Positions 1,085-49,020 of a stretch of 64,000 nucleotides of DNA are shown here, piece after piece (the stretch's first letter is position 1; every line of letters starts with the position of its first letter). Origin of the DNA: Siphonodentalium dalli (lineage: Eukaryota > Mollusca > Scaphopoda > Gadilida > Siphonodentaliidae). Below the pieces are notes generated by a model, which saw nothing but the letters and a program-made list of their open reading frames with translations, did no database searches and was not told the DNA's origin. Position numbers and translations under genes: made by a program. The stretch lies in NCBI GenBank assembly GCA_032622095.1, contig CP136068.1, positions 13,745,729-13,809,728 on the forward strand, written 5' to 3'.

Positions 1085-1119
1085 ATGTAAGTAAAGGAGA
1101 ATCCTGCTACTATGTTGAT

Positions 1120-2043
1120 ATGAATAGATCACAACCACCATCATTGATTCCTGAATTGAAATCTACTCATATTAATGAAGCTGATCCTAGGCTAGCAATG
1201 CATGCTGTGTTTGCATCAGGTAAACATTCTGGAGTTTGTGTTGTTGCCGATGATATGGATGTGTATGTGTTGCTCCTGTTTGTTTCAGAAAAATGTAAAT
1301 GTTCTTTATATTTCCGGCAAGGAACAATTTCTTCAAAATGTGGAATCATGTATCACAATGTAAAATCATTGGCAAGTGAATTAGGACCCAATATATGTGA
1401 TCATCTTCCTGCATTCCATGCACTAACTGGTTGTGATTATACTCAGCCATTCTATGGTAGATCCAAGTCCACAGTCTTTAAAAGGGTTGTTAAACAACAA
1501 AGTGTGTTGGACAAGCTGTCCAGTCTGAGTACTAACACACTAAATGTGAATGAAGTTGTTGATTTTATTCTGCATATTATATACAACAGGCCCGCATCAG
1601 AGACAACTCCTGGGGACTCTCGTTATGCTATGATTATTTCCAAAAAAGGCAATTCAAAGAAGCATGCATCACTTTATATAAGAGGCTCCCTCCAGATATC
1701 AGCTCACTGAAATTAGCAATTTACAGGACACATTATGTCACACATATGATGATAAACTGCCTTAATGGGAATTATGTTTCCCCGCAACCCCCTGAAACAT
1801 AGATGGACTCTGGTTGATGGCCTAACAGAGCCAATCTGGTTTGATGGACCTGCTCTTCCAAGTGTATTGCCAGTGAAGATTAATAATGCAACCGATTCTG
1901 TCGAGCAAAATTATGATGAGATGTCTACTAATGACGTTGAGTGTTCATTTGCTGATGATTCTGATGGGGATGTTGCCGATGATAGTGATGACAGTGAACA
2001 GAGTTCTGGAGATGATTTCTCAGATGATGATTCTGATTATTAA
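1120..2043 (+). pseudogene. Broken transposon-associated multicopy protein (EADxR / HALTGCD family), C-terminal part
   Basis: A 196-codon frame (1120-1710) and a 92-codon frame (1765-2043) appear to be parts of one protein. The first holds EADPRLAMHAVFASG, DDMDVYVLLL and FHALTGCDYTQPF. This order resembles a family scattered in many copies through mollusc and cnidarian genomes, whose members carry EADTR...DTDV.VL...F.ALTGCD. The second carries EPIWFDGPALP, like that family's C-terminal motif, then an acidic Asp/Ser-rich tail. The two frames share a phase but are separated by stops. Reading continues in the +1 frame between about 1670 and 1775, so two compensating frameshifts are likely. The N-terminal half is missing. 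It lies between the direct repeats at 375-1084 and 2170-4187, which fits a decayed mobile element. The biochemical role is unknown to me; family assignment is from memory of motifs. Confidence 0.6.
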
Positions 2044-4187: not shown

Positions 4188-4190
4188 ATA

Positions 4191-5390
4191 GCCCCGTAGG
4201 ATTTTCTTGCTCTAGAGCAGACTCCATATAAGTTATGTACCTTGGGTCAAGGGCTTCCAAAAAAATTTGGGTAGACTTCATCAAATGGTTCTCCCGTCTC
4301 CATGGCAACCGTTTTCAACATGGCTGCCAAGATGTCATATTTTCACATCAGAAAGTCAATAAAGTGTTCTTCCAGTCAAATATGTGGAAGAGTAACAAAC
4401 TGAATTATGTATCAAAATATCCGTATTGATACGGCGGTTAATATGCCGGTGTTACCTTTACGTGTAATAGTGTAAATTATCATTTTATTTTGGGTAGAAT
4501 AGGCTTTTTCATGAATTAAACCAGTGGAAAATGGAATCCAACTGCCTAAGTAACATCTACATCTAGTTTTGGAACGTAACTAAACAATAGATGAGGGATA
4601 TGTTCACATTTTGTAAGCATATTTTGGAGCATGTCAATGTTCCATGGTTCATTTTTGAGGTAAAAATAGCTTTTTTGGTCAAAAATGAGATAATTCTGGA
4701 ATCCATCACAACATGATATGTATCGTTAATTCATGCCATTTTATAAAATTTCCCAGTTTTATTTGTTAATAATTTTAAGTGTTAGATGTCAGTAATAAAT
4801 ATAATAAAGCGTTGTTGGAATAAGGCAGATTATATGGTTACCAGGGTAATTCAAGAGTAACACGATTATTTTGTGGTAAATTAGCTTTTTCTTCAATCAA
4901 AACTGTGAAAAATGGAATCCAGCCGTCTGAATAATATTTACATATATTCTGGAATGGGAACGCAACTGGACATTATAGGGTAGGTATGTTTACATTTGTA
5001 GGATAATTTTGGTTTATGTCATTGATTATGTATATATATAGGGTTCGTTTTCAGGTACATGTAACTATCTCTGAATAACATCCCCCTTTATTTCTATCTA
5101 GGTACTACACATTTATTAGCGGGAGGAGAATTGGCACTTATTCGAAATGAATCACGTGAAAGAGTAACACGATGAATTATGTGTCAACATTTTCATATTG
5201 ATACAGCAGATAACATGTCGGTGTTGTATTTTTGTGAAATGTACGATTTTCTATTTTTGGGGTAAAATGGGATTTTTCGTAAATACACACGATGAAATCT
5301 GGATTTAGTCAAATTTCAACGCTGTTTGCTTCATTTTGACTATCATTGTTCATTGATCTGCTTATATATATACCAAATGACTGGTGATTC
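4191..5390 (+). repeat. Left inverted arm of the foldback element
   Basis: Reverse-complement match to 8545-9566, including the segment that reads MYLGSRASKKIWVDF in both arms (4235-4429 on +, 9328-9522 on -). The arm itself contains a degenerate duplication: the segment around 4890-5020 recurs around 5430-5560 (CTGAATAATATTTRCATATA, GGACATTATAGGGTAGG), which helps explain why this arm is longer than the other. Confidence 0.65.
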
Positions 5391-8544: not shown

Positions 8545-9566
8545 CAGTCATTTTGATATATCTAGAAGCAGATAAATGAATAACGATAGTCAAGATGAAG
8601 AAAACGGCGTTGAAATTTGACTAAAACCAGATTTCATCGTGTTTATTTACGAAAAATCCCATTTTACCCAAAAAATAGAAAATCGTACATTTCACAAAAA
8701 GGCAACACCAACATGTTATCTGCTGTATCAATATGAAAATGTTGACACATAATCCATAGTGTTACTCTTTCACATGACTCAATTCGAATAAGTTCCCACT
8801 AATGAATGTGTATATAGTACATGTACCTATATAGAGATAAAGGGAATGTTATTCAGAATACAGGATTCCAGTTTTCACTGATTTCATTAAATCAAAACAA
8901 ATTACCCTGGTAACCACAGAATCTACCTTATTCCAACAACGCTTTATTATATTTATTACTGACATCTAACACTTAAATTATTAACAAATAAAACTGGGAA
9001 TTTTTATAAAATGGCATGAATTAACGATACATATCATGTTGTGATGGATTCCAGAATGCTCTCATTTTTCATCAAAAAAAAGCTATTTTTACCCCAAAAA
9101 TGAACAATGGAACATTGACATACTCCAAAATACGCTTACAAAATGTGAACATTTCCCCCATATATTGTTTAGTTATGTTCCCGCCGAAAACAAGATGTAG
9201 ATGTTACTTAGGCAGCTGGATTCCATTTTTCACTGGTTTGATTCACGAAAAAGCATATTTTACCATAAATAAAATGATAATGTACACTATTACACGAAAA
9301 GATAACACCGGCATGTTAACCACCATATCAATAGGGATATTTTGATATATAACTCAGTTTGTTACTCTTCCACATATATGACAGGATGAACACCTTATTG
9401 ACTTTCTGATGTGAAAATATTACATCTTGGCAGCCATTTTGAAAACGGTTGCCATGGAGACGGGAGAACCATTTGACGAAGTCTACCCAAATTTTTTTGG
9501 AAGCCCTTGACCCAAGGTACATAACTTATATTGAGTCTGCTCTAGAGCAAGAAAATCCTACGGGGG
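8545..9566 (-). repeat. Right inverted arm of the foldback element
   Basis: Reverse complement of the left arm (4191-5390), ending in GAAAATCCTACGGGGG. Similarity fades inward near 8545. Open frames inside are arm-derived and duplicated in the other arm; they are not genes. Confidence 0.65.
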
Positions 9567-10501
9567 TATAGGCTAGGGCCAGTATTATAATGGTTAAGGA
9601 CTTAAGGTTTGGACTCTTGGCCCATGCAGAGCCATGACTTCATGACACAAGCTCACATGGAGTCACAACGTAGTGGCATGAACCGTTCGTGGGAAACAAG
9701 ACTTTTACAACGTCTATCAACTATCAAATTATTAATTGCGGCGATGTTGCGTCAGCAGTCTCAGGCAATTGTTAGCAACACATGCACAGACTGTACTCCC
9801 ACGCAGTTGCTTGAATGGACGGTGACTGCCGTAAATAAACCGCGATGAACATGCAGTTTCTGCTTATGACGCATTCTAATTTCCATGAGAGCAAATCGTT
9901 TGCGAGTCTTGTGAATGTCAGTGTAGAGTCTAGATAAAATATTATACCAATACATTTCGAGCTTCTGTTATAATGCAAGTTATGCTACATAGACATAATG
10001 TAGAGGACAATGGCTGCTATAGACTGACAATGAAATGGGTGACTTGGTGTTGCTCCGAATGTACTTTTCAAGACTATACATCAGACTCCCGATAAAATAA
10101 AAAATCAGGACACTGAAAAGTATTGGAAATTAACATAAAATTTCATCAAACTATATATAGACTGTTTATTTTGTATTTTCGTAAGTTAACGTACAAAGAC
10201 AAGTTACGAGATGCCACGAAAAGTACACGTCGGCAACAATTTTGTTTGAAGTTTGGGAAGTCAGAACGATGGTTTTATGATTTCCAACTTGTGTAATGTT
10301 ACATTGTATACCATTATGTGGCCTATTAGAAGGTCAAATATAACAATTTGGAATATCCATTAGTTAATCTAAATTATCATTATTATGATCCCTGTCACTC
10401 AAACTAGCCAAATTGTGCATACAACTTCTGCATACAAGCCATACATTTCTTGAGAATGTTCCCGGTTCCCGGTTCTGAAGGGGTTTCATTCACGGTTCCT
10501 G
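9567..10501. other. Non-coding sequence, nothing recognised
   Basis: No exon-like frame, no match to other parts of the window and no obvious repeat. The overlapping short frames at 9609-9978 on both strands lack any domain or splice context. Confidence 0.5.
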
Positions 10502-17859: not shown

Positions 17860-18685
17860 TATATGCAGATGGAAGGTCGACCAATTTCAATCATATTTGG
17901 TATATGGGTCTGTTGCAAGAATATCTTGAACAAGTTCGAAAACCAGGTTTATCCAATCTTCTAAACAAGAGTTATGGGACTTACAATATATAGTTTGTCT
18001 ATTTTTAGCCATTTTGATCGTTCGCAACTGTTAGCATGATAACTCAAACAAACTTTGACCGATTTAATTAATATTTGGTTTGTGGGTCTGTTGCAATAAT
18101 ATCTCAAATGAATTCAAAAACCAGGTTTGTCCAATATTTCATACAAGACTTATGGGACTTAGTTTGTCTATTTGTAGCAATTTTTATCCTTTGCGACCGT
18201 TAATTCAAATAAAATTTGACAGATTTCAATGATACTCGGCATATGAGTCTAAGATGATTTTCGATGAAAAACATGGCCACTGGCAGCCATCTTGGATTTT
18301 ACTCTTTGCATCACTGAACCTTTAGCACACCCTACAGAGCATATATCTCATCTGATCATCGCCAAACTTCAAATGGATCCCCGGGGTGACCTCTAGATGG
18401 GTGCTTACCATTTTTTCCCCGAATTCTATTAAAAAACATGGCTGCCTGTGGCCATCTTGGATTTTACTCTTTGTATGACTAAATCCTTTAGCACAATTTA
18501 CAGGTCACATTTCCCTTCCAATTGTCACCTGAACCTTCATATGAATCTTCTGGATGATTTCTAAAAAACATGGCTGCCATCAGCCATTTTGGGTTTCAAA
18601 TGTGAATCCGTCAGCGCATCCTGCTATCCACATTTATTGGAGAATTGTTTTGAATCCTTACATGCTTGTTTAGGATCAGCACTAA
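17860..18685. repeat. Pearl-like core monomers (family C type), left part
   Basis: Diverged tandem monomers of roughly 130-160 bp marked by GCCATCTTGGATTTTACTCTTTG (about 18285, 18451), ATATTTGGTATATGGGTCTG and GAAAACCAGGTTT. The same monomers resume at 27256 after the 8.6-kb array, so this block was split by it. Related monomers occur in family C at 41616-43860. Confidence 0.65.
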
Positions 18686-19138
18686 AGGTTACACTGGTGT
18701 AAATAAGGTTCCGAGTGACATCTAGCGGATGCGGGAGGAATATATAGGAGAGAATAAAATAGACACTGGGCCCTGATTGGTCAATAGCCTTGTGTGCTTT
18801 TCACATAAAAAAATCATCACACCTCTTCCCTATGATTTCCCATAGGTAAAATAACCATTGGCACAGGAATTAACCCTTTGTAGTGAAGTTTGAATTTTTT
18901 GGTGTGGTCTAAAATATGACTGTATTTTTTTATGCGGTTCTGACACTAGTTACGAAAACATAAGATTTAAAGGCGAATTCCCTGCTAGACAGACATGATT
19001 TTTTTGTGTAAAAAGTTTCCCAAAATGTCAATTTTTCAGATTTAAAGAAAACTTTGGACCCAACATTTATATTGCCAACACTATACGCTAAAACGTTAGC
19101 ACTGAGGCCTATGGAAAACATTTACACCAGTGTAACCT
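18686..19138. mobile_element. MITE-like element M1 (first of seven)
   Basis: Ends AGGTTACACTGGTGTAAAT and its reverse complement form ~19-bp terminal inverted repeats. Each end is itself a near-palindrome (TTACAC-TG-GTGTAA). There is no transposase frame. M1 is followed by TAAA and preceded by TAAA; the whole array is also bordered by TAAA on both sides, a possible 4-bp target duplication, though weak evidence in AT-rich DNA. Superfamily not assigned. Confidence 0.65.
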
Positions 19139-20038
19139 AAAGGGAAAAAATAGCTTTTTATCATTTTTGATTCCTGGGAGTCACTTTAAAGCATTTTAAT
19201 GCATTTTACAGAGCCTGGTCTTTCAGTCCAATGAATATCTCATGCTCGATGTGGCTATTCTTGCTGCTGATGCCTTCTTTCACTTACATCAGCCAAAAAA
19301 ATAGTAAGATTTTTCATAAAAAATGCCAATTTTTCAAGGTATTTTCAAAAAAATTCAAGGTGGTAATAGTCACATGATAATGCAAATGACCCATAACATG
19401 GGCATGTCAACGACACATATATCAATTGTTATAAGAACCTAATTTAACAAGTATTTTGGATTTTATAGCCAGTGATATACAGATATATATCATAAAAGTG
19501 TGTCATTTCCACTGGTGGGTATGGTCATTTGAAGGTTAATAGCACTAAAACTTGGACACATTTAAGAAAATGCTTCAGCAATTCAAAGAGAGCATATCTT
19601 TATTCAACTAATTCAATATACACCCACATCCAGTTATCTTGGATCACCCTTGCAGACCTGAAAATGTCATATTTTATTCTTCAATGTGCTGATAAAGTCA
19701 TGCGCTTGATGCTCAGCTGATCAGATCTGGACTCAATGACCTCACATCACCAGAAGTTCTCTCATGGAAAGAATATTGAACAGTCTTCCATAGCTGATCC
19801 AAGTTTGCAACACCAGACCCCTAAAACTGAGTGAAAATGGGGCCTGAACATGACTGGTGGTGGAAAATTGTGCTTTTTTGATGAATAATTTGTTAAAGGG
19901 GGTGGGGTTAAATTGTGTGTGATAAATAAAGAACCACAGACGTGATATTGTTTTTGAACACATTTTTTCCATGGATGGGCAATTCTGAAGAAATGTAGGG
20001 AGTTACAATTATTCCGCGAAAAAGCGGGCTATCGCTTT
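19139..20038. repeat. 900-bp spacer S1 (first of six)
   Basis: Lies between M1 and M2 and is repeated five more times (20492, 21845, 23198, 24551 and 25903 are the other starts). It has no match elsewhere in the window and no recognisable coding content. It ends in an A/T-poor motif CCGCGAAAAAGCGGGC, itself a small hairpin (CCGC/GCGG), just before the next M. Confidence 0.8.
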
Positions 20039-23000
20039 AGGTTACACTGGTGTAAATAAGGTTCCGAGTGACATCTAGCGGATGCGGGAGGAATATATAG
20101 GAGAGAATAAAATAGACACTGGGCCCTGATTGGTCAATAGCCTTGTGTGCTTTTCACATAAAAAAATCATCACACCTCTTCCCTATGATTTCCCATAGGT
20201 AAAATAACCATTGGCACAGGAATTAACCCTTTGTAGTGAAGTTTGAATTTTTTGGTGTGGTCTAAAATATGACTGTATTTTTTTATGCGGTTCTGACACT
20301 AGTTACGAAAACATAAGATTTAAAGGCGAATTCCCTGCTAGACAGACATGATTTTTTTGTGTAAAAAGTTTCCCAAAATGTCAATTTTTCAGATTTAAAG
20401 AAAACTTTGGACCCAACATTTATATTGCCAACACTATACGCTAAAACGTTAGCACTGAGGCCTATGGAAAACATTTACACCAGTGTAACCTAAAGGGAAA
20501 AAATAGCTTTTTATCATTTTTGATTCCTGGGAGTCACTTTAAAGCATTTTAATGCATTTTACAGAGCCTGGTCTTTCAGTCCAATGAATATCTCATGCTC
20601 GATGTGGCTATTCTTGCTGCTGATGCCTTCTTTCACTTACATCAGCCAAAAAAATAGTAAGATTTTTCATAAAAAATGCCAATTTTTCAAGGTATTTTCA
20701 AAAAAATTCAAGGTGGTAATAGTCACATGATAATGCAAATGACCCATAACATGGGCATGTCAACGACACATATATCAATTGTTATAAGAACCTAATTTAA
20801 CAAGTATTTTGGATTTTATAGCCAGTGATATACAGATATATATCATAAAAGTGTGTCATTTCCACTGGTGGGTATGGTCATTTGAAGGTTAATAGCACTA
20901 AAACTTGGACACATTTAAGAAAATGCTTCAGCAATTCAAAGAGAGCATATCTTTATTCAACTAATTCAATATACACCCACATCCAGTTATCTTGGATCAC
21001 CCTTGCAGACCTGAAAATGTCATATTTTATTCTTCAATGTGCTGATAAAGTCATGCGCTTGATGCTCAGCTGATCAGATCTGGACTCAATGACCTCACAT
21101 CACCAGAAGTTCTCTCATGGAAAGAATATTGAACAGTCTTCCATAGCTGATCCAAGTTTGCAACACCAGACCCCTAAAACTGAGTGAAAATGGGGCCTGA
21201 ACATGACTGGTGGTGGAAAATTGTGCTTTTTTGATGAATAATTTGTTAAAGGGGGTGGGGTTAAATTGTGTGTGATAAATAAAGAACCACAGACGTGATA
21301 TTGTTTTTGAACACATTTTTTCCATGGATGGGCAATTCTGAAGAAATGTAGGGAGTTACAATTATTCCGCGAAAAAGCGGGCTATCGCTTTAGGTTACAC
21401 TGGTGTAAATAAGGTTCCGAGTGACATCTAGCGGATGCGGGAGGAATATATAGGAGAGAATAAAATAGACACTGGGCCCTGATTGGTCAATAGCCTTGTG
21501 TGCTTTTCACATAAAAAAATCATCACACCTCTTCCCTATGATTTCCCATAGGTAAAATAACCATTGGCACAGGAATTAACCCTTTGTAGTGAAGTTTGAA
21601 TTTTTTGGTGTGGTCTAAAATATGACTGTATTTTTTTATGCGGTTCTGACACTAGTTACGAAAACATAAGATTTAAAGGCGAATTCCCTGCTAGACAGAC
21701 ATGATTTTTTTGTGTAAAAAGTTTCCCAAAATGTCAATTTTTCAGATTTAAAGAAAACTTTGGACCCAACATTTATATTGCCAACACTATACGCTAAAAC
21801 GTTAGCACTGAGGCCTATGGAAAACATTTACACCAGTGTAACCTAAAGGGAAAAAATAGCTTTTTATCATTTTTGATTCCTGGGAGTCACTTTAAAGCAT
21901 TTTAATGCATTTTACAGAGCCTGGTCTTTCAGTCCAATGAATATCTCATGCTCGATGTGGCTATTCTTGCTGCTGATGCCTTCTTTCACTTACATCAGCC
22001 AAAAAAATAGTAAGATTTTTCATAAAAAATGCCAATTTTTCAAGGTATTTTCAAAAAAATTCAAGGTGGTAATAGTCACATGATAATGCAAATGACCCAT
22101 AACATGGGCATGTCAACGACACATATATCAATTGTTATAAGAACCTAATTTAACAAGTATTTTGGATTTTATAGCCAGTGATATACAGATATATATCATA
22201 AAAGTGTGTCATTTCCACTGGTGGGTATGGTCATTTGAAGGTTAATAGCACTAAAACTTGGACACATTTAAGAAAATGCTTCAGCAATTCAAAGAGAGCA
22301 TATCTTTATTCAACTAATTCAATATACACCCACATCCAGTTATCTTGGATCACCCTTGCAGACCTGAAAATGTCATATTTTATTCTTCAATGTGCTGATA
22401 AAGTCATGCGCTTGATGCTCAGCTGATCAGATCTGGACTCAATGACCTCACATCACCAGAAGTTCTCTCATGGAAAGAATATTGAACAGTCTTCCATAGC
22501 TGATCCAAGTTTGCAACACCAGACCCCTAAAACTGAGTGAAAATGGGGCCTGAACATGACTGGTGGTGGAAAATTATGCTTTTTTGATGAATAATTTGTT
22601 AAAGGGGGTGGGGTTAAATTGTGTGTGATAAATAAAGAACCACAGACGTGATATTGTTTTTGAACACATTTTTTCCATGGATGGGCAATTCTGAAGAAAT
22701 GTAGGGAGTTACAATTATTCCGCGAAAAAGCGGGCTATCGCTTTAGGTTACACTGGTGTAAATAAGGTTCCGAGTGACATCTAGCGGATGCGGGAGGAAT
22801 ATATAGGAGATAATAAAATAGACACTGGGCCCTGATTGGTCAATAGCCTTGTGTGCTTTTCACATAAAAAAATCATCACACCTCTTCCCTATGATTTCCC
22901 ATAGGTAAAATAACCATTGGCACAGGAATTAACCCTTTGTAGTGAAGTTTGAATTTTTTGGTGTGGTCTAAAATATGACTGTATTTTTTTATGCGGTTCT

Positions 23001-26000
23001 GACACTAGTTACGAAAACATAAGATTTAAAGGCGAATTCCCTGCTAGACAGACATGATTTTTTTGTGTAAAAAGTTTCCCAAAATGTCAATTTTTCAGAT
23101 TTAAAGAAAACTTTGGACCCAACATTTATATTGCCAACACTATACGCTAAAACGTTAGCACTGAGGCCTATGGAAAACATTTACACCAGTGTAACCTAAA
23201 GGGAAAAAATAGCTTTTTATCATTTTTGATTCCTGGGAGTCACTTTAAAGCATTTTAATGCATTTTACAGAGCCTGGTCTTTCAGTCCAATGAATATCTC
23301 ATGCTCGATGTGGCTATTCTTGCTGCTGATGCCTTCTTTCACTTACATCAGCCAAAAAAATAGTAAGATTTTTCATAAAAAATGCCAATTTTTCAAGGTA
23401 TTTTCAAAAAAATTCAAGGTGGTAATAGTCACATGATAATGCAAATGACCCATAACATGGGCATGTCAACGACACATATATCAATTGTTATAAGAACCTA
23501 ATTTAACAAGTATTTTGGATTTTATAGCCAGTGATATACAGATATATATCATAAAAGTGTGTCATTTCCACTGGTGGGTATGGTCATTTGAAGGTTAATA
23601 GCACTAAAACTTGGACACATTTAAGAAAATGCTTCAGCAATTCAAAGAGAGCATATCTTTATTCAACTAATTCAATATACACCCACATCCAGTTATCTTG
23701 GATCACCCTTGCAGACCTGAAAATGTCATATTTTATTCTTCAATGTGCTGATAAAGTCATGCGCTTGATGCTCAGCTGATCAGATCTGGACTCAATGACC
23801 TCACATCACCAGAAGTTCTCTCATGGAAAGAATATTGAACAGTCTTCCATAGCTGATCCAAGTTTGCAACACCAGACCCCTAAAACTGAGTGAAAATGGG
23901 GCCTGAACATGACTGGTGGTGGAAAATTGTGCTTTTTTGATGAATAATTTGTTAAAGGGGGTGGGGTTAAATTGTGTGTGATAAATAAAGAACCACAGAC
24001 GTGATATTGTTTTTGAACACATTTTTTCCATGGATGGGCAATTCTGAAGAAATGTAGGGAGTTACAATTATTCCGCGAAAAAGCGGGCTATCGCTTTAGG
24101 TTACACTGGTGTAAATAAGGTTCCGAGTGACATCTAGCGGATGCGGGAGGAATATATAGGAGAGAATAAAATAGACACTGGGCCCTGATTGGTCAATAGC
24201 CTTGTGTGCTTTTCACATAAAAAAATCATCACACCTCTTCCCTATGATTTCCCATAGGTAAAATAACCATTGGCACAGGAATTAACCCTTTGTAGTGAAG
24301 TTTGAATTTTTTGGTGTGGTCTAAAATATGACTGTATTTTTTTATGCGGTTCTGACACTAGTTACGAAAACATAAGATTTAAAGGCGAATTCCCTGCTAG
24401 ACAGACATGATTTTTTTGTGTAAAAAGTTTCCCAAAATGTCAATTTTTCAGATTTAAAGAAAACTTTGGACCCAACATTTATATTGCCAACACTATACGC
24501 TAAAACGTTAGCACTGAGGCCTATGGAAAACATTTACACCAGTGTAACCTAAAGGGAAAAAATAGCTTTTTATCATTTTTGATTCCTGGGAGTCACTTTA
24601 AAGCATTTTAATGCATTTTACAGAGCCTGGTCTTTCAGTCCAATGAATATCTCATGCTCGATGTGGCTATTCTTGCTGCTGATGCCTTCTTTCACTTACA
24701 TCAGCCAAAAAAATAGTAAGATTTTTCATAAAAAATGCCAATTTTTCAAGGTATTTTCAAAAAAATTCAAGGTGGTAATAGTCACATGATAATGCAAATG
24801 ACCCATAACATGGGCATGTCAACGACACATATATCAATTGTTATAAGAACCTAATTTAACAAGTATTTTGGATTTTATAGCCAGTGATATACAGATATAT
24901 ATCATAAAAGTGTGTCATTTCCACTGGTGGGTATGGTCATTTGAAGGTTAATAGCACTAAAACTTGGACACATTTAAGAAAATGCTTCAGCAATTCAAAG
25001 AGAGCATATCTTTATTCAACTAATTCAATATACACCCACATCCAGTTATCTTGGATCACCCTTGCAGACCTGAAAATGTCATATTTTATTCTTCAATGTG
25101 CTGATAAAGTCATGCGCTTGATGCTCAGCTGATCAGATCTGGACTCAATGACCTCACATCACCAGAAGTTCTCTCATGGAAAGAATATTGAACAGTCTTC
25201 CATAGCTGATCCAAGTTTGCAACACCAGACCCCTAAAACTGAGTGAAAATGGGGCCTGAACATGACTGGTGGTGGAAAATTGTGCTTTTTTGATGAATAA
25301 TTTGTTAAAGGGGGTGGGGTTAAATTGTGTGTGATAAATAAAGAACCACAGACGTGATATTGTTTTTGAACACATTTTTTCCATGGATGGGCAATTCTGA
25401 AGAAATGTAGGGAGTTACAATTATTCCGCGAAAAAGCGGGCTATCGCTTTAGGTTACACTGGTGTAAATAAGGTTCCGAGTGACATCTAGCGGATGCGGG
25501 AGGAATATATAGGAGAGAATAAAATAGACACTGGGCCCTGATTGGTCAATAGCCTTGTGTGCTTTTCACATAAAAAAATCATCACACCTCTTCCCTATGA
25601 TTTCCATAGGTAAAATAACCATTGGCACAGGAATTAACCCTTTGTAGTGAAGTTTGAATTTTTTGGTGTGGTCTAAAATATGACTGTATTTTTTTATGCG
25701 GTTCTGACACTAGTTACGAAAACATAAGATTTAAAGGCGAATTCCCTGCTAGACAGACATGATTTTTTTGTGTAAAAAGTTTCCCAAAATGTCAATTTTT
25801 CAGATTTAAAGAAAACTTTGGACCCAACATTTATATTGCCAACACTATACGCTAAAACGTTAGCACTGAGGCCTATGGAAAACATTTACACCAGTGTAAC
25901 CTAAAGGGAAAAAATAGCTTTTTATCATTTTTGATTCCTGGGAGTCACTTTAAAGCATTTTAATGCATTTTACAGAGCCTGGTCTTTCAGTCCAATGAAT

Positions 26001-27255
26001 ATCTCATGCTCGATGTGGCTATTCTTGCTGCTGATGCCTTCTTTCACTTACATCAGCCAAAAAAATAGTAAGATTTTTCATAAAAAATGCCAATTTTTCA
26101 AGGTATTTTCAAAAAAATTCAAGGTGGTAATAGTCACATGATAATGCAAATGACCCATAACATGGGCATGTCAACGACACATATATCAATTGTTATAAGA
26201 ACCTAATTTAACAAGTATTTTGGATTTTATAGCCAGTGATATACAGATATATATCATAAAAGTGTGTCATTTCCACTGGTGGGTATGGTCATTTGAAGGT
26301 TAATAGCACTAAAACTTGGACACATTTAAGAAAATGCTTCAGCAATTCAAAGAGAGCATATCTTTATTCAACTAATTCAATATACACCCACATCCAGTTA
26401 TCTTGGATCACCCTTGCAGACCTGAAAATGTCATATTTTATTCTTCAATGTGCTGATAAAGTCATGCGCTTGATGCTCAGCTGATCAGATCTGGACTCAA
26501 TGACCTCACATCACCAGAAGTTCTCTCATGGAAAGAATATTGAACAGTCTTCCATAGCTGATCCAAGTTTGCAACACCAGACCCCTAAAACTGAGTGAAA
26601 ATGGGGCCTGAACATGACTGGTGGTGGAAAATTATGCTTTTTTGATGAATAATTTGTTAAAGGGGGTGGGGTTAAATTGTGTGTGATAAATAAAGAACCA
26701 CAGACGTGATATTGTTTTTGAACACATTTTTTCCATGGATGGGCAATTCTGAAGAAATGTAGGGAGTTACAATTATTCCGCGAAAAAGCGGGCTATCGCT
26801 TTAGGTTACACTGGTGTAAATAAGGTTCCGAGTGACATCTAGCGGATGCGGGAGGAATATATAGGAGATAATAAAATAGACACTGGGCCCTGATTGGTCA
26901 ATAGCCTTGTGTGCTTTTCACATAAAAAAATCATCACACCTCTTCCCTATGATTTCCCATAGGTAAAATAACCATTGGCACAGGAATTAACCCTTTGTAG
27001 TGAAGTTTGAATTTTTTGGTGTGGTCTAAAATATGACTGTATTTTTTTATGCGGTTCTGACACTAGTTACGAAAACATAAGATTTAAAGGCGAATTCCCT
27101 GCTAGACAGACATGATTTTTTTGTGTAAAAAGTTTCCCAAAATGTCAATTTTTCAGATTTAAAGAAAACTTTGGACCCAACATTTATATTGCCAACACTA
27201 TACGCTAAAACGTTAGCACTGAGGCCTATGGAAAACATTTACACCAGTGTAACCT

Positions 27256-28260
27256 AAATGGGAGCTATCGAAATTGGAACGATTTTGATGAAAAACATGC
27301 CATCCGGCAGCCATCTTGTTTTACCTGAGTTATGGCCCTTAGTTCTGAGTTCTGTTTTTTTTAACGATTCTCGGTCAGACAAATGTACTCTTATGGGCAA
27401 AAAAACTTTACCAAGCCATCTTTGATGTGCAACCCTTCTTCCGATTTTCAACGAAAAACATGGCTGCAGCCAGTGGCCATTTTGCATTTTACTCTTTGTA
27501 TGACTAAATCCTCTAGCACACCCTACAGGTCACATCCCTCATGCAATCGTCACCAAACTTCATACGGATCATCAGGGTTATTATATAACCTTCAGATGGG
27601 AGCTTACCAATTTTTCCTTTTTACGATGAAAAATGTGGCCGCCGGCAGCCATCTTGGATTTTACTCTTTGCATCACTAAATCCTTTGGCACACCCTACAG
27701 GCCACATCCCTCATCCAATAATCACCAAATTTCATATGGATCCTCGGGGTGACCTCTGGATGGGTGCCATCTGGTATCACTTAGACATTTATGGATCTTT
27801 CACAGAAATATCTCGATTGAGTTTGAAAACCAGTTTGTCTATTTTTATCAAATGTAGGACAGCAATTTTATGGCTGTCAGTGCAAAATCTTTAACAAACA
27901 TCAACGATTCAATTCATATTTGGTATGTGGACCTTTCACAACAATATATCGATCGAGTTTGAAAACCAGGTTTGACAGAATTGTTTTTACCCAAGTTACG
28001 GCCCTTATTTTGTCTATTTTTAGCAATTTCATGACCGTTAGCATGATAACTTGGAACAAGCATCAACCAATTCCATTCATATTTGGTATATGGGTCTTTT
28101 ACAACAAAATCTTGAATGAGTTCGAAAACCAGATTTGTCTGTTTTGTTTTAACTGAGTTATGGCCCTTAGTTCCAAGTTATGGTTTCTTAGAACATAATT
28201 TTTTTGTGATTCACTCTTATGGGCAAAAACTCTTGATGGAACAATTCTTTTGAGTTCATG
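27256..28260. repeat. Pearl-like core monomers (family C type), right part
   Basis: Continuation of 17860-18685: GGCAGCCATCTTG followed by TTTTACTCTTTG motifs, CACACCCTACAGGYCACATCCCTC (cut here to its theme) at about 27518 and 27691, and CCTCGGGGTGACCTCTGGATG at 27743. Right after the array the sequence reads ATGGGAGCT, the same words as in an intact monomer near 27595, so the array sits inside one monomer. Confidence 0.65.
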
Positions 28261-28834
28261 TTAGTGATATCCATAACTATGTAAATATCAGAATGATTAT
28301 TTGGAACATGCATAAACATGTTCAAAACAAAATAATAATGCAGTTTATTGTTCTATTCAATATAAATGTTCATAGATGTAGTCTTTTATATTCATATGTA
28401 TCTTCAGGAATGATTAAGAAGTCAGAAACTGTCATCTGATACAAGATTTTTTTTAAACATTTCTGTCAGGTTGGAATTAAAAGATTAGCAAAAAATAGTA
28501 CTACACAAAATTAAGAATGAGTAAGGTAGTAAAATCTTATATAAGCATTCCACACATAAATATGTCAGACCAACTTGCCATGGAATGCAGAAAAATCAAC
28601 ATCCCTTTCTTATATTTATACTCAATTAGCAGATTAAAAGAGCATTTAGTGCCTATTCTCAAGGATATTCTGATAGCTAGTTGCATTCATACAATATGTT
28701 AACAAGTTGTCCTTCATTCAAATTCCACAGTGCAAATGCATACTAGTATATATGAGTGGAGATATATAAAAATTTGGCAAATTTTGAAGTGATGCTTCAG
28801 TGTCATTGACCATATTTTCATTATTTATAATCAG
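28261..28834. other. Intron-like sequence before Ig exon 1
   Basis: AT-rich, no exon-like frame. It ends in a modest polypyrimidine tract and the acceptor TCAG at 28831-28834. Confidence 0.5.
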
Positions 28835-29086
28835 GGCCTCCTAGTGTGTCAATCTCTCCAAATGGATCTCTGATAATAGTGAGTGGTAACTCAATAGATA
28901 TGACAGTAAATGCCAGACATGGGAATCCTGACCACTACACATACCAATGGAAGAAGGATAGCGCTAATACAGGTACTAGTACTGAATCAAATGTTCTCAG
29001 TGTGGACAAAAAAGGAAACTACAGATGTGTGGTGAGCAATGGAGGGCTGAATACAGATACAACTGCTGTGACTGTTATTGAACATT
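28835..29086 (+). CDS. Ig-like domain exon 1 of an Ig-superfamily gene
   Basis: An 84-codon exon (252 bp) between acceptor AG (28833-28834) and donor GTGAGT (29087). The first two bases complete a codon from an upstream exon and the last base starts the next, so it is phase 1-1. It reads PPSVSISPNG, then TYQWKK (core Trp) and GNYRCVVSN (second Ig Cys, Tyr corner with D replaced by K-G-N), ending AVTVIEH. The first Ig cysteine seems missing: the B-strand reads SIDMTVNA where a Cys is expected at V. The NP.HYTYQW context resembles the subtype of exon 5. It encodes an extracellular adhesion or recognition module. As it needs an upstream exon, the start codon and signal peptide are elsewhere. Confidence 0.75.
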
Positions 29087-31773
29087 GTGAGTACATCAGC
29101 TAATATTTTATCTTGCATGACTTTCTAAGCCTAATCTGCACTGGCCATGGTGATTGGCTGCTTGATATTTACTATTTCTGTTAGTTCCAAGTCTGGAAAT
29201 AACTACAAAATTTTAGTGCTGGACAATATGACAGGTACCAATTTTTGTGTGTCGGTCATTAATAATTTTTGTGCATGTCAAATAAATTTGTACAAGTATA
29301 TGCTATGTGTTATGGGACAATTGAGGTATATAATAAAATTAAATGATTTGATAACACTTTGAAGTGCCAAATACAACTTTTATTTATAATGAGACCCATT
29401 AATGGTAAACACCAAAAAAAATTGAATACTCAGAAAAACAGATAACTTTCTTATATGTCACTACTTGTTGTGTACATGTACTTGAGGAACACGGTACATG
29501 CGTTCATTGAAACTGCACATGTAAACTACCAAGCTAGAATTCATTATGTGTGCAATGTAGATATATCGCCACCAGTCATAATGACAGGCAAACACAAACA
29601 TGCATCGGTCATTTGGGTATTTTCGGCTAGTCATAAGTCAATGCTTATTTTAGGGTGTATCTCAACTTACATACATTTGCTCCTAGAGCATCCAGCCTGT
29701 CATGGCCTCCATTGAAATGCCATCACATGAGTCAGTGGGGTCTTCTATTGAGCTATGATATATAACAGATCCAACACCAAGCTATCATTTGAAATATCTT
29801 GAAATATATTTTAGCATGCATGCTATTTCAGGGTGGTGATATATTTCTCAAGTGACTGGTGCTCTGCTATAAATGTTTGATAAGTTTTATCTGAAATGTC
29901 TTGGTAATTGACAACTAAATGATCATAATCAAATTTAATATGTTATTTGTTAAGATTTTCCTACGTGTGATTGTAGTTTTAACCAGTTTCTTCTTTTGCT
30001 GACCACAAAATTTGCCTTGATACATGTAGTTTCCTAAATTAACACTAACATATGTTTTCAGAACAGATCTACTGTCTCATTTAAATTTGTTTAGGCCTCG
30101 GATACAACACAGTGCACTTGGTGTGTTTATTGTTGAGATCTCTTTGAACAAATGTCTTGTTGTGCAGGGTTTGTGCTGTAGGCCGGTGACCTATTTAAGT
30201 CTCTGGCCAGAAGTTTTTTGGAAATGACCCAATAAAAATAGCATTTGGCCAAACGCACTGGTTCAGAAATGTTCCTTTTAAAACCAAGGACTGCATGTCT
30301 ATCGATAGTATCAAATTGATACTCAGAAAGCTTTTGTTGCATTCGGATATTACGGTCTTCTATATAAACTCCACAATCGAGGTATCACTGGATAAATTTG
30401 TTAAATTATTCACTCCTTATACCAATATGCAATGCTGCATCAGATTCAATCATCTCTGCCGATGGTTCACTGTTCACCAGAGAACAAAGCCAATTGGAGT
30501 TATTTCCCCTTTTGATATATACACGTACATGTATGATATCTATCAATAACTTACTCCTGGAATGAGACCGTCAACATTAAGGTTTATTAATTCAGGACAT
30601 AAACAGTTCAGCCATATCTCAAGCAGATGACATAATGTTGCTATCTCTTACCAAAGAAGGCATGTCAAACTTGATTGTGTATATCTGTCAGATTTGGAGT
30701 GAAATTCTCAAAAAACTGTTATCTTAGTTTTTAACAAAACAAGACATGAGTTTGAGAAATGAAACATACATGGTCAGTCAGCGAATTCTCTACAAATTTC
30801 TCTTGGACCACATAAATGAAAGCTAAACAGATACACAATTTCATTCAGAAGCACACAATACATGATGGGGTGGCTCAAAAATATTAGAAAATGTGATATA
30901 TGTATGGTGCATAAGTTTGGAACAATAACACATATTATTATCCATCCCTTATTATAAACTAACACCTTTTCTGATTGGGCAAAAGCCGCCACGTGATAAT
31001 CCGGGAAAAAGTCATATTGGACTCCTGAATGTCATATTGGACTCCCAAGTGTGCAATATGACTTTTTTATCGTGACATCACAAATTAACTCTATTGCGAA
31101 ATGAATCGGTGAAATTGTGATGCGCGCAACACTGGTGGATTTAGCAGACGGTTCACTTCCGAATTGGGTTTTTTTTTCACTTCCGTGTTTTCTGTTCCAA
31201 ATCATGCTTTCTGATGATCAAAATTCAAGCTTTTATAGAGAATTAAGTGCCGACAAATATCAAAAATAAGCACAAAAGTTTTATTCCCAAAATTTGAATA
31301 AACATACAAATGGATAATAAAAATGTCATTATACAATGTTGTGTACAGTATGAGTTTTCTTGCACTCGTCCAGGTTGTGGTGAAAAGTCATATTGGACTG
31401 TGTCCTGGACTCTTACAAGAAAAACACATACTGTACACAACATTGTATAATAACTTTATATTTTCTTCATGCATGTCTGATCTGTTTGCAACATAGCAAC
31501 TACAGTAAACTGCATATGGAAAAGACCTTGAAAAGATGGAGTCTCTGGAACTACATCAAATACCATCTATTCGGAGAAATGTTATTGTTGAGAAAGTGCT
31601 GGTTTATTTGCTTTGATATTTGGCATCTTGTTTTCCAAATATAATGGTGCAAATTATTCTAACTTTTTTCGTATTAATCAAGTTAACGCAGAGATATTTC
31701 TACAACAATAATGCAATCTGTGTCGTATTTTAAAGACTTACAGGTCTCAAATAAATCTGCCACTTCCTTTCAG
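29087..31773. other. Intron between Ig exons 1 and 2
   Basis: 2.7 kb from GTGAGT to TTTCAG. It holds the inverted repeat at 31329-31450 and the repeated phrase GTCATATTGGACT at 31012, 31030 and 31386. The other frames in it, including 29455-29715 and 30295-30549, have no domain or splice logic. Confidence 0.6.
31329..31450. repeat. Inverted repeat, ~46-bp arms
   Basis: The left arm 31329-31374 (TTATACAATGTTGTGTACAG onward) pairs with 31404-31450 (ending CTGTACACAACATTGTATAA), with a few mismatches and a 29-nt loop. It could be a MITE end pair or a structured intronic RNA segment. Confidence 0.6.
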
Positions 31774-32055
31774 ATCCACCTCAGTCAGGAATTGTACCAT
31801 CTACATTTTACTTTGTCGAAGGTTCTGATCAAACTCTGACTTGCAGTGTGTATGTTACTCCTGGTGTTCCTAAAACTACAACATATAAATGGCTAGTACA
31901 AGAACGTGTTTTGATTGAGAAAGATGCTCTCTCAAGTAGTGACATGACTAGTGATGGAGCTTACAGATGCAGTGGATATAACACAATGACACCAACTAGC
32001 CAACCAAGCGGTATGGAAGGAAAAGCATCAGTTGATGTAAATGTTGAGCTGCAGT
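31774..32055 (+). CDS. Ig-like domain exon 2
   Basis: A 94-codon exon (282 bp), acceptor TTTCAG, donor GTGAGT at 32056, phase 1-1. Joined to exon 1 it gives EH-Y-PPQSG. Ig landmarks are in order: QTLTCSV (first Cys), TTYKWLV (core Trp), SDGAYRCSGYN (D-G-x-Y-x-C Tyr corner with second Cys), and a G strand ending VDVNVELQ. The NTMTPT motif after the second Cys and the CSVYVTPGVP loop are shared with exons 3 and 4, marking one duplicated subtype. C2-like Ig folds of this kind occur in CD22/CEACAM/hemicentin-like bivalve proteins; the exact orthologue cannot be named. Confidence 0.85.
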
Positions 32056-34079
32056 GTGAGTATACATAATGGATAAGTATGCTTCCTTATCGCAATACAA
32101 AAACATAATTGTTTTCCAAAAGTGATGCCTCTTTTACAGAACTGATTGTTTTTCTGTCTGTCTGAAGGATATATCAGCCTTTTGGTTTCTAAAACTCAAG
32201 GAAAATTATATGGATGTTCACCATCATGATACCTTTTAAAGGATTTTCATATATATATAATTATTATAGTGTTCGCATTTCCTCTTCTACAGTATTCATG
32301 TTTGCTTATTTGGAACTGTTCTAACAGTTCAACACAAGCATCTTAGTCATATAAATTTCAATAATAGACCGGTTTTTGGTTTTAAGTCTAATTCAGTGAG
32401 CTCGTAGTCTGTTTGCATTGTGAATCTCTGATTTCTCACATGCCTTGATGTATGATATGATTGACCTAATTTATACATGAAATTGCTATAGGACCCAGTG
32501 CCCCACACTCTGTCGATGAACCCTTGTGCATGTCTGGAGTGTAATATATCATAATCACACCACGATATAAGGCCTAATCTTATTTGATGGGAATACGCAT
32601 CTGTGAAGTTATTTTATGGGATTAAAAAAGACAAAGATATATCCTAGCTTATGCGTGTGTTTTAGTTGTGGTTCGTTAATTACGATAGTGTATGGTCATA
32701 TTATATTATCAACCGGGAACAGGACGACTTATTTCCCTTTTTAAAGGGCTTATTTATTGTGCCATACGTCTTTGATATTTTTCCAACATCATTTTGAATG
32801 GCGTCCGAACGAAGACCAGGAGTTGAAAAATAACACTGAATTATTCAAATGTGAACGTAAATAAAACAAAATTAAAAGATATATAATACAAAATAGGCTA
32901 ACGCAAATTCAGTGCTGATATTATGCGACCTCGTTGACTCCCGAGCTGTGCGTTAAACTTCAACCCGGTCCACGTTAAACTTCAACGCGGTCCTAACATA
33001 CAATCAAGGCGTTATCAACACCACGACCGTGTTGCGTTATCGTTATGACAGCATTGTTAACAGGCTGAGGGCCGCGTTAAAAGGGACACTTATTTCGAGA
33101 AGGTCTGTATGACTATTTCTTGATATGTCTTCTTCTCAAGAACCATCTGGTCTATTTATTTTTACTATGCAGTATCCTTGGATGACTGGAATTAAGTTTT
33201 TTTTTAAATGGGATTAACGGGTCAAATAGGGGTGGAACCAGGGACATAACTATTTTATTCTATAGTAATTAATTCTTGAACATCTTCTCCTCAGGAAAGC
33301 CTATCAGAAGATAGAAGGTATATGCCTTGGTCAATCTTGGTATATTCAGAGACCAATGTTGCTGATAGTTAGTTCTGTTGTAATTAACTCTTTCCTATCT
33401 AATATTACAAAAGTGATTTTAAGTCCATATTACAGATAATTTAGAACCAAGAGCTGTCTCTCATGGAATACTTGTAGAGATTGAAGAGATTAATGTTATC
33501 CTAAGTATATCACTTGGATGGAATCTTCCTCATAATGGGCTCAGTAGGAAATGATGATTTCAACAGTTACTTAACACTTACATTTATGAGGCATAAGAAC
33601 AAAATATTTGTATTTTTCGAGTTTCCCTGCATACCATATTTTAAACACCTTACCCTATAGTTTTGTTCATGGTTTTCAAGAAAGTCTTTAAAACAAAATA
33701 TAGTTTTCATTTTCAATGTCACAGAACGGTTGTTATTTATCAAAGCAATGTGTTTATTACAGTTCATACAAAGAAAATCTTAATGATAAAAGCCATAAGA
33801 ATATGTCAAATAATAAACTAATAAATAAACTTTTAAGCCTACCTATACCAACTAATATTTTCAGACATGTAACCCGAATCAGGCTTTCAGTTTTCTTTGA
33901 CCTTATTCCCCACAAATGAATATGGCGTGAGGTATAGAAATGAGTTCCATGTGTCTGTTTGTCCACAACGATTTTAAATCTCTGGATCTCAGTCATCATA
34001 GAAACTTAACTTCATGTTGAGTGTTAGACCACTTATTTTCAAGTATTTGTGACAAATACTGACTGTTATGGTCTTCAAA

Positions 34080-35789: not shown

Positions 35790-38370
35790 AGGGGACCATC
35801 TAGATGGCACCAAAGGGGTCTACTAAGGGTAACTTTTTATGAGAAAGATAATGGTGTGGGTTAGAATTTTCTAAAGTGACGGCGTTGTCAGTGGTAGAAA
35901 AGGGGAAGGACAGAAAAATTTTTGTCGCTGATTGCCACAAAACTTATATATAAATGATTCCCATGATATGAGGAATCTAATGGTGTTGTTTAAATATGTC
36001 AAAAGTGGCACCATTCGCATCAGGGATGCACCGAAGGGGAGAGGTGCACCAAAATTGATAAAACTAATTTAGCGCCGATTTCCACCAAATTGATACATAT
36101 TCTTCTCCATGATACAAGGACTCTAATTGAGCGATTTAAAGACTCCAAATTGCTGTCGTTTGGATGAAAGATTGTGGGAGGGGCACTCAATTTGATAAGA
36201 ATGGGTTTAGTCGCCTATTGCCACCACACTTATACAATACATCCCCATGGTATGAGGAGTCTAATAGTGTTGCTTAAATCTGTCAAAAGTGGCATCATTT
36301 GAGTCATGGGTGAACTGAAAGGCAGAGGGGCACCAAAATTGATACGCAATATTTTTAGCGCCAATTTCCTCCAAAGTGATACGCATTGTTATCCATAATA
36401 CGATGGAGTATGATAATGTGATTTAAAGACGCCATGTTGGTGCTATTTTGGTGAGAGATGGGGGTGGGTGGGCATTAAATTTGATCAAAATTTATTTTGT
36501 TGCCGATTAGTACCAAACTTAACAATAATCATCTCCATGATATCAGGAGTTTAATTTTGTGGTTGAAGGATGTCACAAGGTGTCACAAGTTCGAGTCTAG
36601 TCCAAGTCTTCTCGTACTAAAGCCGGCTAAGATATTGGGATGGAGGTGCCGGTCTTTAGTCCAAGCCCGCTGCTATACCAATCCTTTGACACGACTTACG
36701 CCCACGATCTGTGGCGGGATTCTGTGGTGTATTTTACTCGATTTACCTAATGAATCAATACATGATGCTAAATACATCGGAAAGAGAGATATCTTATGGT
36801 CATAATGGTGTATAATAATCTAACTTTCATGTTAAATTACGCATAGAATATTCCGGTTGATTGTCACCAACATCGCTGTTTTTTATATTTTGTTTACATT
36901 ACTGAAAGCCGAAGTCAGGTTCCGAAGAACTTCGGCATTGTCCGGTGTTTGTTCTGAGTATTCTAGTTTCCGTTTCTATATATAGCGCGGGGTTTTCCGA
37001 ACAAAATGGAGAAAACCGATCGCCGCAAAGTCCAGTTTCCAATGTGCTTTGAGAACAATTCCCGCACTAAAAACTTAATGACATAATGGAGGATCAGAAA
37101 GGTAGTTTTGTTGACAATTTTCGCAAGCAACTTGTCAAAATTGGAGCAAATTAGAACTCTTGTGTCTAACTTGCCATGCGTGTGATTTTCATCCATGTGC
37201 ATTTTGACCTTTGTGTTGATAAAATAATCGGAGAACCGAATCACACAGTTTCGAAATATAGTTCTTCCGTTTTAGTGGGACTTTTCAAACTTAAGGTTAA
37301 AAATTTATACAAATTTTGTTTGATTTTTTGTGTGCTTAACAAGAGCATTATATTGCTCTGTTCGCTTAGTATATATCTTAATTTCGCTGAAGTCCATCAA
37401 ATGTGGGAAATGTAGCACCATATTATTTATTCTAATGATCGTTGTGTTTACACTGTTTTAAACTTTGAGAGGGTTGTAATTCCCCGTAATTTATTTAATG
37501 TATTACATTTATATCTTCAATGTTTAATTAATCTATTTATTTTTTATTTATTGACACACATAATTACGATTACAATGGAGAATTCATCGTAATTTGCATT
37601 GTCAGTCGAAAATCTACGGAATATTTTCAACGGAAAATGCCGAACACAGTTCGCGAGGTCAAGTGAGTTCGCATACTTTTAAAAATTTGTAAACATTGCG
37701 GTAAATGTCTCTTTTCGCATTAAATTACCGCTTTCAATTCACAACTGATGTGGGTTTCAGATCAAATAGCATGTCTTCTGCGGAAAATATCCGTTTATTG
37801 TCGCAATTGTGATATTTTATTTCATATAATTGTGGTTTTATTTGAGCGGGTCACTAACGCTTAACTCGTGTCAAAGGAATGCATGGGCCTGGAACTCGGA
37901 CTAAAGACCGGCACCTCCATCCCAATATCTTAGCCGGCTTTAGTACGAGAAGACTTGGACTAGTTCGAGTCAGGATGCATAGGGGGTGAGAGGAACACAA
38001 AAAAAGAAAGATGAACAATATGTTTAACGCCGATTTCCACCAGATTGATACATATTTTTCTCCGTGATAATGATAAATCTGATCATGTGGTCCTAATCAT
38101 GTGGCCCTAAATTTGATACGAATTTGTATACTTGCCTATTTTCACCAATGTTATATATAGTTTTATTATATTTCCATAATGAGTCTAAGTGTGTGGTTTA
38201 ATGATGACAAACGAGGCGCCGCCTCTGTCTGAAATAGGGACGGGAGGGTCACCAAAACTGATAAAAAAATATGTTTAGTGCCAATAACCATCAAATTCAT
38301 AAAAGTTCTTCTCAAATGATACGAGAAATCAAATCGTGCGTGTTAAAAACGTATAACGAGCTAGCAAAAC
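35790..38370. repeat. Core-repeat block (~160-bp monomers) split by a long-TIR element
   Basis: Diverged monomers carry the words GGCACCAAAATTGATA, GCCGATTTCCACCAAATTGATA and CATGATA..AGGA (about 35950, 36110, 36240, 36400, 38030). The block is interrupted by the element at 36598-37962, with the 9-bp GTTCGAGTC duplicated at the junctions. No coding content. Confidence 0.65.
36598..37962 (+). mobile_element. Long-TIR DNA element, Mutator-like size class, copy 1
   Basis: 1365 bp. The first 65 bp (TAGTCCAAGTCTTCTCGTAC onward) are exactly inverted at the right end; weaker pairing continues to about 100 bp. It is flanked by a perfect 9-bp duplication, GTTCGAGTC (36589-36597 and 37963-37971). Long TIRs plus 9-bp duplication fit a MULE-type non-autonomous element. 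The frame at 37176-37415 (MRVIFIHVHF...) is also open in copy 2 but has no recognised domain. It contains TATATATAGCGCGGGGTTTTCC-like sequence near 36980. Confidence 0.85.
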
Positions 38371-48734: not shown

Positions 48735-49020
48735 GTGAGTTGTTTATTATTGCAACAATAGTATACAGTACTATAAATTAAATGTTTATTGTACATGATT
48801 TTGGTATTGGTTTCCTTGATTCTTAGTTATGTTTTGTAATTTTGTAATTTGTTCTTGGCATAGTGTCGATTATCAATGTTTGATTGCGCATCATAATTAG
48901 TGATCATGTTATTGTTGTTGTGGTGTTGTCGTCATGGGTTGAATAAGGATCTTTGGATATAAAATTATTTTTTTAAGTAAACCACCACATAATACAGTAA
49001 GTATATATTAACAATACAAA

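What the first reader, a model, noticed from the sequence alone, without database searches (positions are those of the whole stretch)
18686..27255. Alternating element/spacer satellite: seven 453-bp MITE-like units and six 900-bp spacers
The 1353-bp repeat is not a plain satellite. Each unit is a TIR-ended element plus a spacer, and the array starts and stops exactly at element ends. This suggests a composite insertion (element-spacer-element) later amplified by recombination between the element copies, a possible birth-of-satellite case.
Basis: partly seen in the sequence, partly recalled or inferred. Interest (0 to 1): 0.7.

Follow-up and report, generated by a model that had tools for sequence, protein, structure and literature searches.

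The report
Tandemised composite transposon, possible newborn satellite
Seven near-identical copies of a small inverted-repeat-ended mobile-type element alternate with six copies of a 900-base spacer, and the whole block looks like one foreign insertion whose units were then multiplied, a plausible snapshot of a satellite DNA being born but seen at only one place.

Summary
The ends need one correction. The element is best read as 451 bp, GG…CC, with an 18-bp perfect inverted repeat. The outermost base on each side then belongs to a 4-bp direct repeat, TAAA (18683-18686, 27255-27258), that brackets the whole array.

Two new results favour a composite insertion. The array interrupts an older ~155-bp repeat; with the array removed and one TAAA kept, that repeat is back in phase, so the spacer was probably imported. 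Both inner spacer edges are also TAAA/TTTA, as expected if two independent element insertions once bounded it.

Amplification has left a signature: the array is one element plus two copies of a three-unit block that differ by one base.

Best reading: an E-S-E "macrotransposon" jumped in and was expanded by recombination between E copies. Tandem LTR arrays share this layout, but the LTR hallmarks tested were not met. The host genome is not held, so copy number, solo elements and the source of S are untested. Interest is moderate.

The parts
18683..18686 (+). left target-site duplication TAAA (best reading)
   Evidence: identical TAAA on both sides of the whole array
18687..19137 (+). element E1 (451 bp, GG…CC, 18-bp TIR)
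20040..20490 (+). element E2
20491..21392 (+). spacer S2
21393..21843 (+). element E3
21844..22745 (+). spacer S3 (variant G732A in the 900-bp frame, shared with S6)
22746..23196 (+). element E4 (variant G67T in the 453-bp frame, shared with E7)
23197..24098 (+). spacer S4
24099..24549 (+). element E5
24550..25451 (+). spacer S5
25452..25901 (+). element E6 (1-bp deletion in a CCC run)
25902..26803 (+). spacer S6 (variant G732A in the 900-bp frame)
26804..27254 (+). element E7 (variant G67T in the 453-bp frame)
27255..27258 (+). right target-site duplication TAAA, lying where the compared host repeat units read TAGA or CAGA
23198..27255 (+). three-unit block, second copy (S4E5S5E6S6E7, 4058 bp), differs from the first by one 1-bp deletion
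18256..18682 (+). left flank: host ~155-bp repeat interrupted by the array
27259..27767 (+). right flank: continuation of the interrupted host repeat

Best explanation
E is a non-autonomous, inverted-repeat-ended DNA element (MITE-like). In a source locus two copies in the same orientation came to lie either side of about 0.9 kb of DNA (S). A transposase supplied from elsewhere used the two outermost ends and moved E-S-E as one composite (a macrotransposon) into a TAAA site inside an older ~155-bp repeat, duplicating the 4 bp. The E copies, being long direct repeats, then misaligned, and unequal exchange turned E-S-E into E-(S-E)n; the last visible step doubled a three-unit block. Shown: the alternating anatomy, the bracketing TAAA, the in-phase flank spacing, the inner TAAA/TTTA edges, the block duplication, the near-zero divergence. 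Inferred: that E is mobile, that it moved as a composite rather than arriving another way, that a transposase did it, and unequal exchange as the amplification route.
For: The array begins and ends with E. TAAA lies on both outer sides. With the array removed and one TAAA kept, host repeat spacing across the site is 155 bp, against 165, 132, 163 and 175 for the four neighbouring spacings and 155, 165 and 147 elsewhere in the window; the right-hand TAAA lies 37 bp before the next AAAACATGG-type motif, where TAGA or CAGA lies 36-39 bp before it in 6 of the 7 other units compared (20 bp in the seventh). Hence S and E look foreign to the site. The inner edges of S are TAAA and TTTA, the same site read on the other strand; each 4-mer makes up about 1% of window positions, so by my own arithmetic both edges matching is about 4 in 10,000, after the fact. 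S3-E4 and S6-E7 share both substitutions, the two 3-unit blocks differ by one base, and differences per position are fewest at a lag of three units: 2 of 4512, against 8 of 7218, 7 of 5865, 3 of 3159, 3 of 1806 and 1 of 453 at lags 1, 2, 4, 5 and 6. The 9 distinct frames of 40 aa or more in one unit have no Pfam family above cut-off (8, with one DUF hit at E=0.1 below its cut-off; the ninth). The single-strand DNA fold of E, inverted ends included, is stable (z -2.66, 0 of 100 shuffles as good). Excision and re-insertion of composites bounded by transposon ends is reported for maize Ac (passages of PMC9910405; PMC4270019).
Against: No solo E or solo S was seen, so mobility of E is not shown. 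The 4-bp repeat is short (chance 0.6%, or 1.7% over three end registers), and other readings of the same letters exist: 2-bp AA with a 19-bp inverted repeat; 3-bp TAA with one extra A on the left; or a 22-bp TTTAGG…CCTAAA end with the first copy's left end altered, which would also account for the inner TAAA/TTTA edges without any target preference. No paralogue alignment spans the junction of the joined flanks, so the empty site rests on spacing and on the right-hand motif; the left flank next to the site is diverged. No element superfamily could be assigned. Two same-orientation insertions 0.9 kb apart plus composite movement takes more events than one LTR-type insertion.
Confidence: 0.55

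Rival explanations
1. A solo E with a TAAA duplication sat at the locus, and a circular (E-S)n molecule made elsewhere recombined into it, giving E-(S-E)n with no composite transposition.
For: Gives the same anatomy: E at both ends, one duplication outside, S foreign. Extrachromosomal circles of tandem repeats are known in print (PMC3225859, search listing and start of abstract only).
Against: A resident E might be expected to differ a little from the circle's E, leaving hybrid outer copies; E1 is identical to the consensus and E7 differs only at the variant it shares with E4. Later homogenisation could hide this.
Confidence: 0.18
2. E is an LTR and S the internal part of a non-coding LTR retrotransposon (TRIM/LARD type); the array is a tandem LTR structure with shared LTRs.
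For: [quoted passage not shown] Needs fewer events.
Against: E ends GG…CC, not TG…CA; an 18-bp perfect inverted repeat is far longer than usual LTR ends (recalled); no TGG (the usual primer-binding start, recalled) in the first 30 nt of S on either strand (first at 36 on +, none in 60 on -) and no purine run of 8 or more in its last 60 nt on either strand; no Pfam domain. It gives no reason for the inner TAAA/TTTA edges.
Confidence: 0.12
3. Alternative transposition: at the source, E's cut end was rejoined 0.9 kb away on the sister chromatid, directly duplicating E+S; only one E insertion was needed before the composite moved.
For: Such events make tandem direct duplications and composite insertions in maize (passages of PMC4270019); the S-to-E junction lies exactly at the E end.
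Against: Cannot be told from two insertions using one locus; still needs the composite to move here, because S looks foreign to these flanks.
Confidence: 0.1
4. The tandem or its copy number is an assembly artefact: the true locus has one to three units.
For: The two 3-unit blocks differ by one base in a C run, typical of sequencing error.
Against: Shared and unshared variants give an ordered pattern; each block alone still holds three units with E ends. No reads were available.
Confidence: 0.1

Closest known systems
Ac/Ds macrotransposons of maize
   Same: DNA between transposon ends moves as one unit and carries a TSD (passages of PMC9910405 and PMC4270019)
   Different: There 8-bp TSDs and composites of 10-28 kb with gene segments, and an hAT element (recalled); here a 4-bp TSD, an unassigned MITE-like element and an array with seven E copies
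Tandem LTR-retrotransposon arrays (rice and other plants; that paper also cites Drosophila and kangaroo cases) and Cassandra TRIM arrays
   Same: Alternating terminal repeat and internal segment, ending in a terminal repeat; for the rice arrays an outer TSD was reported. The paper ties one locus to a single insertion and leaves complex insertion versus recombination open in its discussion
   Different: E lacks TG…CA ends and S lacks a primer-binding start and purine tract; E has an 18-bp inverted repeat
MITE-derived satellites (Xstir, miDNA4, bivalve Pearl/HindIII/BIV160; named in passages of PMC12628747, PMC9659126 and PMC8268682)
   Same: Tandem repeats that grow from MITE-like elements
   Different: In the passages I read tandem repeats arise inside the element or from its parts; here the whole element alternates with a non-element spacer
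Satellites from double insertion of, or recombination between, transposon copies (McGurk and Barbash 2018, not held, seen only as a citation; Wong and Choo model in passages of PMC12628747)
   Same: Direct TE copies as substrate for unequal exchange
   Different: Double-insertion dimers share a target site (detail recalled); here 0.9 kb of unrelated DNA lies between copies

Membership tests
MITE / non-autonomous TIR DNA element | perfect or near-perfect terminal inverted repeats, short, no coding capacity | tested here: met
   18-bp perfect TIR, 451 bp; no Pfam family above cut-off in 9 of 9 distinct frames of 40 aa or more in one unit
MITE / non-autonomous TIR DNA element | target-site duplication of fixed length at solo copies | tested here: inconclusive
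   TAAA around the whole array; no solo copy in the window
MITE / non-autonomous TIR DNA element | many dispersed copies in the genome | not testable with these tools
   no genome held for this window
MITE / non-autonomous TIR DNA element | shared ends with an autonomous transposon | not testable with these tools
   no collection of animal genomes here; 0 viral contigs with the 18-bp end; 4 bacterial contigs, whose matches to E are 18-22 bp at that site and to S none
Composite (macro)transposon | two element copies bounding non-element DNA, one TSD outside the whole, foreign to the flanks | tested here: met
   but TSD chance is 1.7% over registers and no alignment crosses the joined junction
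Composite (macro)transposon | movement as a unit: empty and filled sites, or copies elsewhere | not testable with these tools
LTR retrotransposon (TRIM/LARD) tandem | TG…CA termini | tested here: not met
   GG…CC
LTR retrotransposon (TRIM/LARD) tandem | primer-binding site after the first LTR and purine tract before the last | tested here: not met
   both strands of S; only the TGG start and purine runs were tested, not full tRNA complements
PIF/Harbinger (Tourist-like) superfamily | 3-bp TWA target duplication and GG…CC ends (recalled) | tested here: inconclusive
   outer right TAA and inner edges TAA/TTA fit; the outer left reads AAA unless one A was inserted
Tc1/mariner superfamily | TA target duplication (recalled) | tested here: inconclusive
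   inner edges and the outer right edge have TA, the outer left has AA
Helitron/Helentron | no TSD and a 3' terminal hairpin (recalled) | tested here: not met
   outer TAAA direct repeat; folds of the 60 nt at the S end, S start, E start and E end: 11, 95, 29 and 52 of 200 shuffles fold as well, so at most a mild hairpin at the S end
Satellite DNA | long, abundant arrays at multiple loci | not testable with these tools
   a single array of 6.3 units seen

The most novel reading that the evidence does not exclude
A self-dispersing satellite: because every unit boundary is an intact transposon end, arrays of any length E-(S-E)n could be mobilised whole, so the array both grows by recombination and jumps by transposition, carrying seven copies of a CTCF-like motif with it.
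Probability: 0.12. Interest if true: 0.65.

Novelty: new variant of a known kind. Interest (0 to 1): 0.4.

Why it matters
How satellite DNA starts is mostly inferred from old, diverged arrays. Here the units are nearly identical, the probable insertion scar is still readable, and one amplification step (a three-unit block doubled) can be seen. If long reads and solo copies bear it out, it would be a young animal case linking composite transposition with satellite birth. Among the papers I looked at, the two halves of this picture appear separately, as maize macrotransposons and as tandem LTR arrays.

Tried and rejected
LTR/TRIM reading: TG…CA, primer-binding-start and purine-tract tests failed, so kept only as a rival. 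Helitron reading: no support. S as a second inverted-repeat element: its ends looked inverted over about 25 nt by eye, but shuffles score as well (728, 849 and 1616 of 2000 for 30, 40 and 60 nt), so rejected. S as local host DNA between two E insertions: judged unlikely because the flank repeat is in phase without it. E and S as relatives: best shared stretch 17 bp at E=0.004, not pursued. E and S elsewhere: none in the window; no match of one 1353-bp unit in phages or plasmids at E 1e-5; 0 viral contigs for the 18-bp end or for a 24-base S pattern. Four bacterial contigs carry the 18-bp end; their matches to E are 18-22 bp at that site alone and to S none, taken as chance. The TIR letters occur in 0 papers searched. 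Rfam at gathering scores and ARAGORN (bacterial code): 0 hits. No superfamily assigned. Rows dropped before counts: for the flank spacings I used 11 of the 13 plus-strand AAAACATGGCTGCC-like hits (isolated 4315 and 45832 left out, and none of the 16 minus-strand hits); the gap 42134-43658, which holds another element, was not counted. For the target-site comparison I used 8 units that have both motifs; the other TAGATGGG-like hits, including 27757 in the same family (TGGATGGG with no following motif), were left out.
Full report
What is there. The window is 36% GC. I take it for animal DNA: no genome is held for it (which gives several possible reasons), only one ATG/GTG/TTG frame reaches 150 aa, and 5 of 10 frames scanned match immunoglobulin domains, one of them above the curated cut-off. 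The repeat style suggests a mollusc to me, but that is recall, not a test. The array 18686-27255 holds seven copies of E and six of S, in one orientation, with 99.8-100% identity. Three sites vary: E67 G/T in E4 and E7, S732 G/A in S3 and S6, and a 1-bp deletion in E6.

Where the ends are. Taking one base off each side gives GG…CC, 451 bp, an 18-bp perfect inverted repeat, and a direct repeat TAAA on the two outer sides of the whole array (18683-18686, 27255-27258). The chance of a 4-bp direct repeat is 0.57% at fixed ends and 1.7% if three end registers are allowed. Inside the array every E has TAAA on its right, and E2 to E7 have TTTA on their left. TTTA is TAAA on the other strand; each 4-mer is about 1% of window positions. 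If E prefers such sites, both inner edges of S look like halves of two older E insertions. This is an after-the-fact argument, and a 22-bp TTTAGG…CCTAAA end with an altered first copy would explain the inner edges as well.

What it interrupts. The flanks belong to a ~155-bp repeat with an AAAACATGGCTGCC-like motif. With the array removed and one TAAA kept, successive motif spacings are 165, 132, 155, 163 and 175 bp; elsewhere in the window they are 155, 165 and 147. The 155 across the site is ordinary, so neither S nor E seems to have been part of the old locus. The right-hand TAAA TGGG lies 37 bp before the next motif; TAGA TGGG or CAGA TGGG lies 36-39 bp before it in 6 of the 7 other units that I compared, and 20 bp in the seventh. 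Against this: no alignment to a neighbouring unit crosses the joined junction, and the left flank next to the site is diverged.

How it grew. S3-E4 and S6-E7 share both substitutions. Split after E1, the array is two blocks of 4059 and 4058 bp that differ only by the E6 deletion. Differences per position are lowest at a lag of three units: 2 of 4512, against 8 of 7218, 7 of 5865, 3 of 3159, 3 of 1806 and 1 of 453 at lags 1, 2, 4, 5 and 6. The simplest history is a three-unit array with two mutations in its last unit, doubled as a block, then the E6 deletion. An assembler could also double a block, and a C-run deletion is a common sequencing error, so the count of six spacers is not secure.

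What E and S are. One E-S-E stretch has 9 distinct stop-to-stop frames of 40 aa or more; none has a Pfam family above cut-off (8, with one DUF hit at E=0.1 below its cut-off; the ninth). E with its inverted ends folds well as single-stranded DNA. The ends of S are not inverted repeats beyond chance. Neither E nor S occurs elsewhere in the window. E therefore looks like a MITE, but dispersal and the autonomous partner are untested, and no superfamily fits without a caveat: 3-bp TWA (PIF/Harbinger-like, recalled) needs an extra A on the outer left, and TA (Tc1/mariner, recalled) fits the edges except the outer left.

Which mechanism. A composite E-S-E insertion followed by unequal exchange explains the outer TAAA, the foreign spacer, the inner TAAA/TTTA edges and the block duplication. 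Circle integration into a resident solo E gives the same plan but might leave outer copies that differ a little, which is not seen. The LTR-type plan is identical in layout: rice tandem LTR elements carry an outer TSD and shared LTRs; the authors tie one locus to a single insertion and in their discussion leave complex insertion versus recombination open (abstract, sections 8 and 13 of PMC11899658). [quoted passage not shown] The LTR hallmarks tested were not met. Excision and re-insertion of DNA between transposon ends is reported in maize (passages of PMC9910405; PMC4270019). Satellite birth from MITEs and from unequal exchange between TE copies is reviewed in PMC12628747 (passages and its section 7) and PMC9659126 (passages); C. 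gigas satellites are discussed in PMC8268682 (passages). In searches I saw no listed paper whose title or start of abstract describes MITE-spacer-MITE arrays bracketed by one TSD. Four of those lists were capped (17: 20 of 28; 26: 20 of 46; 46: 10 of 261; 47: 15 of 33), and the library misses most subscription journals, so this is weak evidence of absence.

Verdict. The composite reading is the best supported, at about 0.55. It is a new variant of a known kind rather than a new kind, seen at one locus without its genome.

Noticed in passing
18687-27254, in each E copy (for example 18715-18728, minus strand): Each E carries CCGCTAGATGTCAC, one mismatch from a CTCF-like consensus (recalled); these 7 are the only matches with at most one mismatch in the 64 kb, and 3 others have two.
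   Followed up: partly
36597-37963 and 42150-43512: Two inverted copies (89%) of a ~1.37-kb element with ~105-bp terminal inverted repeats, flanked by direct repeats TTCGAGT and GCCGCCAG; the second sits in the same ~155-bp repeat family that the array interrupts.
   Followed up: partly
28831-29100, 31755-32066, 48257-48778, 55131-55442, 63142-63465 (+): Five exon-like frames matching immunoglobulin domains, the first above the curated cut-off and the other four below it; the first lies 1.6 kb downstream of the array, which may sit in or before an Ig-family gene.
   Followed up: no
4188-4851 and 8900-9569: Inverted pair of a ~670-bp repeat, 92% identical.
   Followed up: no
62420-62743: Seven copies of a 46-bp tandem repeat at 98%.
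   Followed up: no
1084-2040 (+): Longest stop-to-stop frame of the window (208 aa) with overlapping or adjoining frames of 79 and 95 aa; no Pfam match for the 208-aa and 95-aa frames, the 79-aa frame not scanned.
   Followed up: no
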